From Carboxylicivirga linearis (lineage in GTDB: Bacteria > Bacteroidota > Bacteroidia > Bacteroidales > Marinilabiliaceae), in assembly GCF_018271995.1 (NCBI RefSeq), contig NZ_JAGUCO010000021.1:1-64000 (forward strand): a DNA stretch of 64,000 nt, written 5' to 3'. The first letter of the stretch is position 1; every line of letters begins with the position of its first letter. Made by a program: the position numbers and the translations under genes. The notes beneath the pieces were generated by a model. That model saw nothing but the letters and a program-made list of their open reading frames with translations, was not told where the DNA came from and ran no database searches. This document shows positions 28,226-32,695 of this stretch, in pieces.

Positions 28226-29716
28226 ATGAGTGAAGATTTGATGAATTTCGATATACCTCAGGATAATTCCTCAATCATTAAAGTAATTGGTGTTGGAGGA
28301 GGTGGAAGCAATGCCGTCAACTACATGTATGGTTTAGGTATCAAAGATGTAAGTTTTGTGGTGTGTAATACCGATGCTCAGGCATTAGAGAATAGTCCTA
28401 TTCCTGTAAAAATTCAGTTGGGCGAGTCACTTACTGAAGGACGTGGTGCCGGTAACCGCCCGGACAAAGGACGTGAGGCCGCCATTGAAAATCTGGAAGA
28501 TGTAGTTACAGTATTAGAAAATAATACAAAAATGGTATTTGTTACTGCCGGTATGGGTGGAGGAACAGGTACCGGAGCAGCACCTATTATAGCCCAAAAA
28601 GCTAAGGAATTAGGCATTTTAACTGTGGGTATTGTTACCATTCCGTTTCGCTTTGAAGGAAAATTACGAATCAATCAGGCATTGGATGGCATTGCCGAAA
28701 TGGAAAAGAATGTTGATTCGTTGTTAATCATCAATAATGAAAGGTTGCGGGAGATGTTTGGCGATTTAAAATTGTCGAATGCTTTCTCAAAGGCCGATGA
28801 TGTTTTGGCTACAGCAGCTAAAGGTATTGCTGAAATAATTACGGTTCATGGCTATATAAACGTCGACTTTGCCGATGTTGAAACAGTAATGAAAAATAGT
28901 GGTGTGGCTATTATGGGATCGGCTTATGCTGAGGGAGCAACACGTGCTATAGATGCCATACAGGCTTCGTTGGAGTCTCCTTTATTGAATAATAATGATA
29001 TTAGAGGAGCGAAAAATATACTGCTTAATATTACGTCGGGTAGCGATGAAGTTACCATGGATGAGGTAGGTGAGATTACCGATTATGTGCAAGATGTGGT
29101 GGGCGAAAGTGCTTCTATCATTTGGGGTACAGGTAATGATGATACAATGGAAGGACAGGTTTGTGTAACCATTATAGCTACCGGTTTTGTGTCCGGACAG
29201 CTGATTGAGCATCAGGAAAAAAAGAAAGAAGAAGCCGTTACTCGTTTTTCACTGGACGAAAATGGTGATATTATTGATAGTCAAAAAGAAGAACCGACTG
29301 CTTTTGAATTGGATGATGAAGAGAGTGAAAGGGTGATTGATTTTGAGTTAATCGAAAAGCAAAAGCAACAACGAATAGAAAAGTATTATAAGCCTATTGT
29401 TCCGCAAGCTAATAAATCACCCGAGGTTGAGAAGTTTCAGTTGGATGATACCTTTGAAAGTGCTGGCTCTATAGAGCAAAATAATGCCTATGGCTATCGA
29501 AGAATTCAGCTTACTCAGGAGGAGATGGAAGATGAGCGTATGATAGAGCAATTAGAAAATGTTCCTGCCTATAAACGCAAGCAGATGGGCGAAGGTAATC
29601 CTAAGCCTGAAGTGAAGCAACAATCGCAGGTGAGTCGATTCTCTTTATCAGATGATTCAAAGAACGGACCGCGCATTAGTCGCGATAATCCATATTTACA
29701 TGATAATGTTGATTAA
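28226..29716 (+). CDS. ftsZ: Cell division GTPase FtsZ
   Basis: 496-residue tubulin homologue. N-terminal VIGVGGGGSNAVNYM (about 20-34), the GTP signature GMGGGTGTGAAP (about 109-120), NVDFADVETVM T7 region (about 211-221) with catalytic aspartates. The GTPase core ends near 325, followed by a long acidic, glutamine-rich linker and the terminal peptide ISRDNPYLHDNVD, the position of the FtsA-binding tail in Bacteroidota. It is longer than E. coli FtsZ because of the linker. yqeY follows 11 bp later. Confidence 0.97.
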   Translation: MSEDLMNFDIPQDNSSIIKVIGVGGGGSNAVNYMYGLGIKDVSFVVCNTDAQALENSPIPVKIQLGESLTEGRGAGNRPDKGREAAIENLEDVVTVLENNTKMVFVTAGMGGGTGTGAAPIIAQKAKELGILTVGIVTIPFRFEGKLRINQALDGIAEMEKNVDSLLIINNERLREMFGDLKLSNAFSKADDVLATAAKGIAEIITVHGYINVDFADVETVMKNSGVAIMGSAYAEGATRAIDAIQASLESPLLNNNDIRGAKNILLNITSGSDEVTMDEVGEITDYVQDVVGESASIIWGTGNDDTMEGQVCVTIIATGFVSGQLIEHQEKKKEEAVTRFSLDENGDIIDSQKEEPTAFELDDEESERVIDFELIEKQKQQRIEKYYKPIVPQANKSPEVEKFQLDDTFESAGSIEQNNAYGYRRIQLTQEEMEDERMIEQLENVPAYKRKQMGEGNPKPEVKQQSQVSRFSLSDDSKNGPRISRDNPYLHDNVD

Positions 29717-29727
29717 ATAATAAGAAA

Positions 29728-30177
29728 ATGAGTTTAGAAGTAACACTTAACAATGATATTAAAGAAGCCATGAAGGCAAAAGACCGTGTGCGTCTCGAAG
29801 CTTTACGTGGTGTGAAAAAAGAAGTTCTGGAAGCTAAAACGGCTAAAGGTGGAGGTGGTGAACTGGATGATACAGCCATTGTAAAAATTATTCAAAAAAT
29901 GGTGAAGCAGCGTAAGGATGCAGCAGCATTATATAAAGAACAAAATCGTGAGGATTTAGCTGAAAAAGAATTGGAAGAAGTGGTAGCTATTTCGGGTTAT
30001 TTACCAGCTCAAATGAGTAAAGACGAGCTAACTGCAGCTGTGAAGGCAATTATTGAAAAAACAGGTGCTACCTCGATGAAAGAAATGGGAAAAGTAATGG
30101 GTGTTGCATCTAAAGAATTAGCTGGTAAAGCGGATGGAAAAGATATTTCTGCAGTAGTTAAAGAGCTGTTAGGATAG
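29728..30177 (+). CDS. GatB/YqeY domain protein
   Basis: 149 residues covering one YqeY domain, the helical domain also found at the C terminus of GatB (amidotransferase) and bound to tRNA there. Recognisable parts: LNNDIKEAMKAKDRVRLEALRGVKKEV at the start and the MGKVMGVASKELAGKADGKDISAVVKELL end. The free-standing protein is common in bacteria, but its function is unproven. Last gene of the dcw transcript, ended by a hairpin terminator 25 bp downstream. Confidence 0.9.
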   Translation: MSLEVTLNNDIKEAMKAKDRVRLEALRGVKKEVLEAKTAKGGGGELDDTAIVKIIQKMVKQRKDAAALYKEQNREDLAEKELEEVVAISGYLPAQMSKDELTAAVKAIIEKTGATSMKEMGKVMGVASKELAGKADGKDISAVVKELLG

Positions 30178-30201
30178 TATCAGTTTATATTATAGTAAGA
30201 G

Positions 30202-30233
30202 CCGGGTTCTGCATCGAATCCGGTTTTTTTTTG
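30202..30233 (+). terminator. Terminator of the dcw-yqeY operon
   Basis: CCGGGTTC and GAATCCGG (one G-T pair) with a six-base loop, followed by nine T. Confidence 0.85.
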
Positions 30234-30550
30234 TGAAAAAAATACCAATATGGCTTAATTATTCCTTTATGGTTTATAGAGCTGGTTACATATGGTGTAG
30301 AGGTATCTCTATAATGTTAAGAGGTGGTTATATGGGCCATAAAGGTATCTGTATAGTTTATAAAGGTAGTTACATAAGTCATAAAGGTATCTCTATAATG
30401 TCTAGAGATAGTTTTATAAGCTTTAAAGGTATTTGTGTCGGCTTTAAAGGTAGTTACATAAGTTATAAAAGTATCTCTATGGTGTTTAGAGATGGTTTTA
30501 TCGGCATTGAAGATATCTATATAGCTTATAAAACTAGTTACATAAAGTAA
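30233..30550 (+). CDS. Possible 105-residue heptad-repeat protein (doubtful)
   Basis: The tandem repeat keeps one frame open for 105 codons. The translation is a seven-residue repeat of pattern aromatic/Ser/Cys, Ile, x, x, Lys/Arg, Gly/Asp, Ile/Ser/Gly, for example YISHKGI-SIMSRDS then FISFKGI-CVGFKGS. I do not recognise it. Against coding: the GTG start overlaps the terminator T-run, no promoter or ribosome site is visible, and a 21-bp repeat without stops stays open automatically. For coding: no frame-breaking change in fifteen units, and the substitutions keep the hydrophobic/basic alternation. An ATG at 30269 is an alternative start. If made, it would be a small basic beta-like or membrane-binding repeat. 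Confidence 0.25.
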   Translation: MKKIPIWLNYSFMVYRAGYIWCRGISIMLRGGYMGHKGICIVYKGSYISHKGISIMSRDSFISFKGICVGFKGSYISYKSISMVFRDGFIGIEDIYIAYKTSYIK

Positions 30551-30574
30551 AAAGGTGGTCTCTGTAAGTTTTGG
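30260..30574 (+). repeat. Hierarchical tandem repeat: fifteen 21-bp units in 84-bp super-units
   Basis: From 30260 the sequence runs in strict 21-bp register for about fifteen units with no insertion or deletion. A typical unit is GGTAGTTACATAAGTTATAAA (30449). Units four apart are the most alike: 30302, 30386 and 30470 share GGTATCTCTATAATG-type starts; 30281, 30365, 30449 and 30533 share GGTTACATA/AGTTACATA; 30344, 30428 and 30512 share GGTATCTGTATAG-type starts. So four different 21-mers form an 84-bp super-unit present about three and a half times. The last unit (30554) is decayed. This is the content of the only non-genic stretch over 300 bp (30178-30634), along with two terminators. Confidence 0.9.
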
Positions 30575-30583
30575 TGCGGATAC

Positions 30584-30613
30584 AAAAAAAGCAGAGCTGT
30601 AAACTCTGCTTTT
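30584..30613 (-). terminator. Terminator of ppiD and its operon
   Basis: AAAGCAGAG and CTCTGCTTT pair across CTGTAAA. The seven A at 30584-30590 form the U-run for the minus-strand transcript. Confidence 0.85.
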
Positions 30614-30634
30614 AATATATAGGATTGATTAATT

Positions 30635-32695
30635 CTAGTAAAATTTAATTCTATTATCATCAATGCTTGCATTCTCTCTTATAACCTGATATGCTTGATA
30701 TGCTTTATAAGAACTGGTTTGTGCCAATTGAGATTTAGCAGCCTCAACATTGGTTTCTTCAGTAGTAACTGTTGTTACTTTCACAACAAAAACACCGTTA
30801 TTTCCAGCAACAGGAGTGCTTACTTCACCTTCTTTGGTGGTAGTAGCAACAGCAACTAATGCTGGTTCAACACCTGCTCCAGGAACCTGGTATGAAGCGA
30901 ATGTGATGTCGCTTGCCGACTGAACTTCAGTATTGGTTGCAGAAGCAAGAGCATTCAAATCATTTCCTTGTTTCTTGCTCTTTAAATCAGCAATGATCAT
31001 ATCAGCTTTTTTCTTGTTTCGTAACTGACGCTCGATAGAAGACTTAACAGAAGCCAATGTTTGATATCCTTCTTCTTTAATTCCTGTTAAGAAACCAATC
31101 ACATATTCATCTCCAAATTCAAAAATGTCAGACATGTCATGGATATCAGCTTCGAAAGCCCAGCGGATCATTTCTCTTGAGCCATCCATGTTAGAAACAT
31201 TGCGGTCTGTTTTACGAATATTACGTCCGTAACGTTTTATTAAATTCTCACTTTGAATGCTTTCGTTGAACTTTTCGTAAGTTTTGTTTTGAGAAGCAAA
31301 CTTAGCCGCTTGTGCGTAAACTTGTTGGTTTGTTTTTGAGCTATAAGCAACTTTACGATCCAAAGTAGCAATATTGTATTTTGTAACTGGTTTTCCTTTA
31401 TCCTGTATATTGATAATGTGTGTACCAAATTGAGACTGAACTTTTACAATATCACCTTTTTTACCGTTGAAACAAGCATCGTTAAAAGGTTTAACCATTG
31501 TTCCTTCGTTAAACCAACCTAAGTCTCCACCGTTGATAGCAGAACCCGGATCTTCAGAATTAGCACGAGCTATTTCAGCAAAATTAGCACCACCTTTTAC
31601 AAGGTTAAATAAACTGTCAGCTACAGTAGGGTCTTTCAATAAAATATGACGAGCTTTAACTGAGTCAGGAATTTGCTTAACGTCAACTAAACGAGTTAAC
31701 TTATAAGTTTCACCTTCCTGATAAGGACCGTACACTTCTCCAACTTGAGCACCACTAACAAAATCCTGTAGTTTAGAACTAAGTTGCTCAATTTTCCAGT
31801 TACGCTCTACATGCTCTGTTTCAGAGTTCATTTTAACGTATTGTACCGCATCAGTTTCTGGATTTGAAAACTCTGCTTTAGCATTTTTAATCCACTCTAA
31901 GGTTGCTTCTTTATCTTCGTCAGAAGGCTTTACTTCAAATGAAACATATTCTACCTCACGAGTAGCATCTTGCTTGTAGTTTTCAATATTTGAATTGTAG
32001 TAATCCTTAATTTCGCTGTCAGAAACAGTGATGGTTGAGTCAGGAATGGTAGCGTAACGCTTTACAATAAAATCGAAATCAACAACAGCTTTTTTAGCTT
32101 CGGCTTCAGCTTTTGCTTGTGCAGTTGTTACATACATACCTTTTGAAATCAGGTCGCTGTATTTTTTCATCAAACGCTCATTCTTGATTTGTTTCTCCAG
32201 AAACATCCAAAAGAATTGTGCACTTGGATCTGCGTCTTTTTGTCTTAAGAAATTAATTACCTGCTGCTTATCAAACATTCCTGTTTGAGGGTTAGTAAAC
32301 ATTTGGCGAATTTGAGGATGTACATTTTTTCCTGTTGCCATGTCAAAGATTTCATCAGATGTTACGTGAATGCCAAGATCTTCATACTTTTCATTCATAA
32401 TAACGTCTTGTACCATCTGATTCCATGCTTGTTCTCTGATCTGGTAAGAAGTATTCTCATCCATTGCAGAAGAACGTGAATTCAGTTTATAGTAATCTTC
32501 TAATTCAGTTAAATAAGCCTGATATTCAGGTAATGATACGGTGGTTCCGTTTATTTCCGCAATTTCCATTTTGCTACTTCTAAACATTGAACCTCCTGAG
32601 TTCATTAAGTCTCCCAACAAAAAGGCAGCCATACCGACTCCGATCACAACGATCACTAAACCGGCTTTGCTCCTAATTTTCTCTAATGTTGCCAT
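30635..32695 (-). CDS. PpiD/SurA-type peptidyl-prolyl isomerase, membrane anchored
   Basis: 686 residues. One N-terminal membrane helix (about 12-31), a SurA-N-like chaperone region (about 40-230), a parvulin (PpiC) domain at about 340-440 with VKARHILLKDP, GGDLGWFNEGTMVKPFNDACF and FGTHIINIQDKG, and a long C-terminal chaperone-like part. This is the PpiD layout: a periplasmic foldase held in the inner membrane that helps outer-membrane and secreted proteins fold. It lies 112 bp downstream of the hemolysin-family gene and may share the coaX-lptC transcript or have its own promoter. Confidence 0.9.
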   Translation of the reverse strand: MATLEKIRSKAGLVIVVIGVGMAAFLLGDLMNSGGSMFRSSKMEIAEINGTTVSLPEYQAYLTELEDYYKLNSRSSAMDENTSYQIREQAWNQMVQDVIMNEKYEDLGIHVTSDEIFDMATGKNVHPQIRQMFTNPQTGMFDKQQVINFLRQKDADPSAQFFWMFLEKQIKNERLMKKYSDLISKGMYVTTAQAKAEAEAKKAVVDFDFIVKRYATIPDSTITVSDSEIKDYYNSNIENYKQDATREVEYVSFEVKPSDEDKEATLEWIKNAKAEFSNPETDAVQYVKMNSETEHVERNWKIEQLSSKLQDFVSGAQVGEVYGPYQEGETYKLTRLVDVKQIPDSVKARHILLKDPTVADSLFNLVKGGANFAEIARANSEDPGSAINGGDLGWFNEGTMVKPFNDACFNGKKGDIVKVQSQFGTHIINIQDKGKPVTKYNIATLDRKVAYSSKTNQQVYAQAAKFASQNKTYEKFNESIQSENLIKRYGRNIRKTDRNVSNMDGSREMIRWAFEADIHDMSDIFEFGDEYVIGFLTGIKEEGYQTLASVKSSIERQLRNKKKADMIIADLKSKKQGNDLNALASATNTEVQSASDITFASYQVPGAGVEPALVAVATTTKEGEVSTPVAGNNGVFVVKVTTVTTEETNVEAAKSQLAQTSSYKAYQAYQVIRENASIDDNRIKFY

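What the first reader, a model, noticed from the sequence alone, without database searches (positions are those of the whole stretch)
30260..30574. Hierarchical 21-bp / 84-bp tandem repeat with an open heptad-repeat frame after the dcw operon
About fifteen 21-bp units run without a single indel. Every fourth unit is most similar, so four distinct 21-mers form an 84-bp super-unit. The plus frame stays open for 105 codons as a seven-residue repeat alternating aromatic/Ile positions with Lys/Arg-Gly/Asp. 21 bp is two DNA turns, so a phased protein-binding array is as plausible as a small repeat protein. I know no family of this kind. Coding status is unresolved.
Basis: partly seen in the sequence, partly recalled or inferred. 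Interest (0 to 1): 0.75.

Follow-up and report, generated by a model that had tools for sequence, protein, structure and literature searches.

The report
Helically phased intergenic palindrome array
A stretch of apparently non-coding DNA between two facing bacterial genes repeats a near-palindromic 21-letter unit every two turns of the double helix, and arrays with this same spacing turn up between genes in related bacteria, which points to an unexplained DNA element rather than a small protein.

Summary
The array is real: about fifteen 21-bp units, 84-bp super-period, no indel (0 of 500 shuffles reach its score). It fills a convergent gap between yqeY and a SurA/PpiD-like gene, between two opposed terminator-like hairpins. 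It does not look coding: codon position 2 varies most, pN/pS between 84-bp copies is 1.20, and the antisense frame is nearly open too. Its units are imperfect palindromes.

It is not alone. In 3.1 Mb sampled from Bacteroidales, 43 of 49 non-coding arrays with shortest lag 12-60 bp lie at 20-23 or 40-43 bp, against 3 of 17 coding arrays and 0 of 4 in 650 kb of other bacteria. TRF shows the same peak, less cleanly: 46 of 82, controls 1 of 4, but coding arrays peak at 20-21 too. Detected arrays favour convergent gaps. Most unit sequences differ between loci. This copy is absent from the same gap in the two nearest relatives. I read it as a DNA-level, helically phased element at gene 3' ends; function is inferred only. 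Nearest published thing found: BrickBuilt of Porphyromonas gingivalis.

The parts
30248..30556 (.). Array of about fifteen imperfect 21-bp palindromic units with an 84-bp super-period; no indel
30233..30550 (+). Open frame of 105 codons, judged not to be a gene
   Evidence: frame; no family, second codon position most variable, pN/pS 1.20
30197..30228 (+). Terminator-like hairpin after yqeY
30587..30613 (-). Terminator-like hairpin after the facing gene
29728..30177 (+). yqeY-like gene, left flank
   Evidence: PF09424
30635..32695 (-). SurA/PpiD-like peptidyl-prolyl isomerase gene, right flank
   Evidence: PF13623, PF13616

Best explanation
A non-coding, DNA-level array of near-palindromic 21-bp sites, one every two helical turns, in the gap between two convergent genes. 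It belongs to a recurrent class of intergenic arrays in Bacteroidales whose shared feature is spacing (about 21-22 bp, sometimes 10-11 or 40-44) more than one sequence. Shown: period, dyads, setting, recurrence of the spacing. Inferred: such arrays arise by local tandem duplication, and the register is kept because each unit shows the same face of the helix to a dimeric or oligomeric DNA-binding or architectural protein that marks or stiffens a gene 3' end, where convergent transcription piles up supercoils. I put about 0.85 on 'non-coding phased array of this class' and about 0.35 on the protein-binding boundary role.
For: No indel in about 300 bp although neighbouring units differ at nearly half their positions. 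Dyads: 59% complementary positions at the best phase against 28% averaged over phases, a second dyad 10.5 bp away; 0 of 40 column-permuted arrays pair as well. Spacing peak in 3.1 Mb: 43 of 49. Convergent gaps hold 12 of 33 detected arrays of the class where gap length predicts 4.6; divergent 3 where 8.3 are predicted (my arithmetic). Lag-21 signal is highest in convergent gaps in each of three genome groups (z 6.2, 4.0, 5.1). Conserved columns cluster within units over 36 arrays. 22-bp members exclude a frame-based cause.
Against: No binding or expression data. The window array itself does not show the column clustering. No 10.5-bp GC harmonic over 37 arrays (t 1.3), so a gyrase-like wrap is not supported. 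After masking detected arrays the lag-21 signal is about equal in all gap types (z 3.9 divergent, 3.1 convergent, 3.2 tandem). In TRF, coding arrays also peak at 20-21 (15 of 38, my count). The array is missing from the same gap of the two nearest relatives. The window's + strand has more G-T than A-C mismatches in its palindromes (19 against 7) and folds better as RNA than the - strand, which an RNA role would also give.
Confidence: 0.4

Rival explanations
1. Neutral minisatellite with a mutational bias: slippage or template switching in supercoiled or hairpin-prone DNA favours steps of two helical turns, so such arrays arise often, survive where they harm nothing, and decay.
For: Absent at the orthologous gap in G006 and G001; most loci have their own sequence; halves of the palindromes do not covary in the window array (p 0.36), as expected if the dyad is inherited from a founder unit.
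Against: No indel despite heavy substitution; excess in convergent and deficit in divergent gaps; clustered conserved columns over the class; one other array of the genome (L178) lies in a gap that aligns end to end at 89% with G001.
Confidence: 0.3
2. RNA-level element: read-through transcripts of one or both genes fold into hairpin rods at the 3' end that stop polymerase or block exonucleases.
For: 3'-end preference; array folds better than column-permuted versions on both strands (0 of 60 each); some class members are tandem hairpins; the window's + strand shows G-T over A-C mismatches 19 to 7.
Against: The array lies outside both terminator-like hairpins. Over 18 tandem-gap arrays, sense strands have 79 G-T and 109 A-C mismatches (my sum), so no general G-U preference. 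No covariation in the window array. G excess over C on the window's + strand (skew 0.41) may alone explain its G-T count.
Confidence: 0.16
3. Dispersed, possibly mobile minisatellite comparable to BrickBuilt: whole arrays or their units are carried between loci and genera.
For: A related array in another genus at another locus (alignment score 70, highest of 300 column-permuted controls 47); that genome has two further matches; 21 of 903 array pairs exceed a null level where 4.5 are expected.
Against: No second copy in its own genome; no clear terminal inverted repeats, the best bracketing pair being array units themselves; only 3 of 71 family genomes match the G022 array, one of them weakly.
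Confidence: 0.1
4. A small heptad-repeat protein.
For: 105-codon open frame.
Against: Codon position 2 most variable, antisense nearly open; pN/pS 1.20 between 84-bp copies (0.79 and 0.82 at 42 and 21 bp); no Pfam match near cut-off; in G022 the aligned frame has 2 stops and its 93-codon open stretch lies in another frame, though 2-bp gaps shift frames along that alignment.
Confidence: 0.03

Closest known systems
BrickBuilt minisatellite/MITE of Porphyromonas gingivalis (PMC4596501; abstract, section 9 and word-search passages seen)
   Same: Intergenic tandem array with a unit near two helical turns (23 nt), imperfect units with conserved and variable sites, predicted stem-loops, same bacterial order
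   Different: BrickBuilt is one sequence family (19 copies in one strain) with leader, tail and terminal inverted repeats; the window array has a different sequence, 21-bp units, no clear terminal repeats and no second copy in its genome
REP/BIME elements (PMC3733652 passages; PMC6379681 passages)
   Same: Extragenic palindromes, predominantly between tandem and convergent genes
   Different: One sequence family in many copies per genome; not met here
Prokaryotic satellites (survey PMC6749651; parts 1 and 2 of 5 read, whole text word-searched)
   Same: Tandem arrays with units of 10-200 nt, many unique in sequence
   Different: A word search of its main text found no 'Bacteroid', 'helical', '21 bp' or '22 bp'
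Phased A-tracts / curved DNA (PMC3940949 passages)
   Same: Helical phasing in bacterial DNA
   Different: Here whole units or motifs repeat, often with G/C in them; no 10.5-bp GC harmonic over the class. Some members (L132, L176, L188) do look A-tract rich and may be of that kind

Membership tests
BrickBuilt | 23-nt repeat of the published consensus | tested here: not met
   Consensus quoted not found in the window with up to 3 mismatches; unit is 21 bp
BrickBuilt | Leader and tail with terminal inverted repeats | tested here: not met
   No clear pair; best bracketing arms (30259-30271, 30541-30553, 85%) are array units
BrickBuilt | Several copies in the genome | tested here: not met
   Next best match in own genome 23 bp
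REP/BIME | Same palindrome at many extragenic loci | tested here: not met
REP/BIME | Related Y1 (RAYT-type) transposase in the genome | tested here: inconclusive
   4 Y1_Tnp matches in own genome; the family also covers IS200/IS605 (recalled)
Protein-coding repeat | Constraint on codons | tested here: not met
Helically phased Bacteroidales arrays (class described here) | Non-coding array with base period 20-23 bp | tested here: met
   shortest lag 21, no ORF overlap, convergent gap
Helically phased Bacteroidales arrays (class described here) | Bound by a protein or altering topology | not testable with these tools
   Needs occupancy or supercoiling data

The most novel reading that the evidence does not exclude
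Bacteroidales chromosomes carry a widespread class of intergenic arrays (43 in the 3.1 Mb sampled) whose selected property is register: a mostly locus-specific motif shown once every one or two turns of the helix, often with dyad symmetry or as two blocks pointing at each other. A conserved chromosome-organising protein or topoisomerase would read this register rather than one sequence, marking gene 3' ends.
Probability: 0.3. Interest if true: 0.82.

Novelty: new variant of a known kind. Interest (0 to 1): 0.6.

Why it matters
If non-coding arrays in a bacterial order are locked to two helical turns, spacing itself is either under selection or built into how repeats form there; both are testable and I found neither described in the searches made. 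It is also a warning for annotation: such arrays can stay open on both strands and be called repeat proteins. Gut Bacteroidales (Phocaeicola, Parabacteroides) have arrays of this spacing, so occupancy and deletion tests are practical.

Tried and rejected
Small repeat protein: rejected. Rfam: two L20-leader matches far below the gathering score (22 and 21 bits against 58.7). Phages: no match of the array. Plasmids: asked only with the related G022 array, no match. Gyrase-like wrap: GC harmonic not enriched. Covariation: window p 0.36; combined p 0.028 for 13 palindromic and 9e-5 for 24 other arrays, set aside because the phase had been picked to maximise pairing. A link between 22-bp units and palindromes was tested at 8 of 13 against 7 of 24, p 0.08; not claimed.

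Literature: ten searches of an open-access library; none listed a paper describing such a class, judging from titles and abstract beginnings; subscription journals and preprints were not searched.

Limits: gene models are mechanical ORFs (100 codons, 110 later), so short genes are missed. The score cut-off moved from 17 to 18 to 20; at 18 E. coli has one 21-bp array (18.9). The period bins were chosen after the first sample. The window's array is one of those counted. Stretches were chosen by contig and convenience, not at random. 6 of 39 arrays sat at stretch edges and were dropped from the context count. TRF with two-copy arrays favours some unit sizes, so its counts are rougher.

Full report
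OBSERVATION. The sequence at 30260-30574 is as described. TRF reports period 84 over 30268-30571 with no indels. Identity between units peaks at every fourth unit (15.0 of 21, against 11.4 for neighbours). The best-lag score of 95.0 compares with a highest of 16.9 in 500 dinucleotide shuffles. A lag scan of the whole 64-kb window at score 17 finds only this array.

SETTING. Upstream on + lie ftsA, ftsZ and yqeY; facing it on - lie a SurA/PpiD-like isomerase gene and a CNNM/CorC-like gene. A terminator-like hairpin closes each side (30197-30228 on +, 30587-30613 on -; 2 found, 0.5 expected in shuffles); the array lies between them. The promoter scan of 29700-31000 gave four sites, all on - and no more than expected. 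The genome shares a genus (g1) with three genomes whose contigs match, in length and position, contigs named Carboxylicivirga (G005, G010, G012); other g1 members bear other names there (Marinilabiliaceae bacterium A049, Saccharicrinis sp. UBA6048).

NOT A PROTEIN. In the open + frame, mean column entropy is 0.72, 1.23 and 0.76 for codon positions 1, 2 and 3; a conserved protein should vary most at 3 and least at 2. pN/pS in that frame is 1.20 between 84-bp copies and 0.79 and 0.82 at 42 and 21 bp; the other five frames give 0.46 to 1.03 at 84 bp, so the ratio is noisy but shows no special constraint on the open frame. The antisense frame in the same register has one stop in 105 codons. The GTG start lies at the end of the terminator T-run. 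Pfam gives nothing near a cut-off.

PALINDROMES. Folding the array on itself around a centre repeated every 21 bp gives 59% complementary positions at the best phase against 28% averaged over phases; a second dyad lies 10.5 bp away with 44%, as geometry requires of a periodic sequence with one dyad. Of column-permuted arrays, which keep the repeat and scramble the unit, 0 of 40 pair as well; by two other measures 3 of 60 and 1 of 60 do. Predicted RNA folding is stronger than in column-permuted arrays on both strands (0 of 60 each). Halves do not covary across units (p 0.36), so the dyad may simply be inherited from the founder unit.

RELATIVES. In the two nearest relatives the same gap, recognisable by both flanking genes, lacks the array: in G006 it is short, in G001 it holds other sequence. 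In the other relatives shown I did not identify the genes after yqeY systematically, and part of that output was cut. The array has no second copy in its own genome. Of 100 genomes, 6 including its own match at E 0.01 or better. The longest match outside it, 70% over 128 query bases, is a 21/126-bp array of G022, another genus, in a different gene setting. Their local alignment scores 70; the highest of 300 column-permuted controls was 47. G022 has two further matches to its array (77% over 135 bp, 81% over 53 bp). Of 71 family genomes 3 match that array at E 0.001 or better: G022, G000 and, weakly, G047.

A CLASS WITH ONE SPACING. A scan for local repetition at every lag from 8 to 259 in 2.0 Mb from six genomes gave 133 arrays, 54 of them mostly outside ORFs (one simulated hit at score 17 or more in a fifth of the sample). 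Shortest lags crowded at 21 and 22. With more Bacteroidales added (3.1 Mb) and a cut-off of 20, 79 non-coding arrays were found; 49 have a shortest lag of 12-60 bp: 18 at 21, 13 at 22, 3 at 23, 1 at 20, 8 at 40-42 and 6 elsewhere (15, 15, 24, 24, 39, 39). The 17 coding arrays in that range are all multiples of 3, three of them in the bins. In 650 kb of E. coli, Proteus and Lachnospira 8 non-coding arrays were found, 4 in that range (14, 14, 59, 60), none in the bins. The binomial p of 6e-25 (39 of 45) is only descriptive, because the bins were chosen after the first sample. In sets examined afterwards, by my count, 15 of 18 arrays fall in the bins, and in 80 short named loci from across Bacteroidota 3 of 7 do, with one more at 44 (cut-off 18): together 18 of 25. 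TRF gives 46 of 82 non-coding arrays of period 10-60 at 20-23 or 40-44, against 1 of 4 in controls; among arrays of 3 or more copies, 21 of 30 lie at 21-23. But TRF coding arrays also peak there, 15 of 38 at 20-21, so by TRF the contrast with coding DNA is modest. The peak is robust; its sharpness depends on the method.

CONTEXT AND ANATOMY OF THE CLASS. Detected arrays of the 21-22 class prefer convergent gaps: 12 convergent, 18 tandem, 3 divergent among 33 with both flanks, against 4.6, 20.1 and 8.3 expected from gap length (my arithmetic; 6 arrays at stretch edges dropped). Lag-21 autocorrelation is highest in convergent gaps in each of three genome groups. Once detected arrays are masked the remaining signal is about equal in all gap types. 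In tandem gaps 12 of 19 arrays are nearer the upstream 3' end. By three palindrome measures 16 of 35, 9 of 35 and 13 of 37 arrays stand out from column-permuted versions. Some are tandem 18-bp hairpins in 21-22-bp units (Phocaeicola L275). Others hold a short motif repeated at 21 or 11 bp and then the same motif inverted (L157, L178; L155, L250). Conserved columns cluster within units over 36 arrays (lag-1 t 5.2; lags 5-7 negative), though not in the window array itself. Most loci have their own motif, but 21 of 903 array pairs exceed the 99.5% null level where 4.5 are expected; among the pairs whose flanks I compared, one shares a clear flanking gene and the others do not.

MECHANISM. Shown: apparently non-coding, in register, dyadic, between terminator-like hairpins, one of a recurrent class. 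Inferred: the register matters to something that meets DNA on one face. Lags that are multiples of 21 (42, 84, 105, 126) fit B-DNA pitch, while 22 and 11 would also fit an RNA duplex. Against RNA stand the place outside both hairpins and the lack of a general G-U preference (79 G-T, 109 A-C mismatches in 18 tandem-gap arrays, my sum); for RNA speak the window's own 19 to 7 G-T excess and its better + strand fold. Against a gyrase-type wrap, which in E. coli has a 10.75-bp GC period (PMC6379681 passages), stands the missing GC harmonic. A dimeric architectural protein binding every two turns is my best guess at about 0.35; duplication in steps of two turns without function is the strongest rival at about 0.3.

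KNOWN THINGS. BrickBuilt (PMC4596501: abstract, section 9 and passages) is nearest; the window array fails its sequence, copy-number and terminal-repeat tests. REP/BIME share palindromes and location (PMC3733652 passages) but are one sequence in many copies; not met. The survey of prokaryotic satellites (PMC6749651, parts 1-2 of 5 read; word search) does not use the words Bacteroid, helical, 21 bp or 22 bp. Ten text searches listed no paper on such a class. I therefore call it a new variant of a known kind, intergenic bacterial minisatellites, with a class-level regularity I have not seen reported.

CHANGE ON CHECKING. The check added the TRF coding peak, the 80-locus result, the masked residual and the window's own G-T excess. 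The odds on the best explanation (0.4 overall) already allow for them; the RNA rival is set at 0.16 because of the last.

Noticed in passing
L157 11743-11943 and L178 2220-2436 (own genome): The same 7-bp motif (GGCGAGC) repeated at 21-bp spacing and then inverted, with unlike linkers, at two loci; the L178 gap aligns end to end at 89% with G001.
   Followed up: partly
L155 17115-17245 (own genome) and L250 19813-19952 (Marinilabilia rubra): An 11-bp-spaced TTCTTCG-like motif, then its inverse; similar sequence in two genera.
   Followed up: partly
L203 3891-4120 (G001) and L250 13458-13723 (Marinilabilia rubra): Two 10-bp-period arrays, alignment score 135, in different genera; the flanking genes compared do not match each other.
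   Followed up: partly
L275 15020-15103, 40479-40580 and L274 14915-15047 (Phocaeicola massiliensis record): Tandem arrays of about 18-bp palindromes in 21-22-bp units; two of the three share a motif.
   Followed up: partly
L009 1290-1690 (G022) and G022 contigs C404, C38: One array family at three places in one genome, related to the window array.
   Followed up: partly
L192 18641-18855 (G001): A 127-bp tandem duplication that looks like a duplicated tRNA gene (my reading, not tested).
   Followed up: no
L202 4858-5038 (G001): Seven identical copies and a partial eighth of a 23-bp unit in a tandem gap, so a recent expansion.
   Followed up: no
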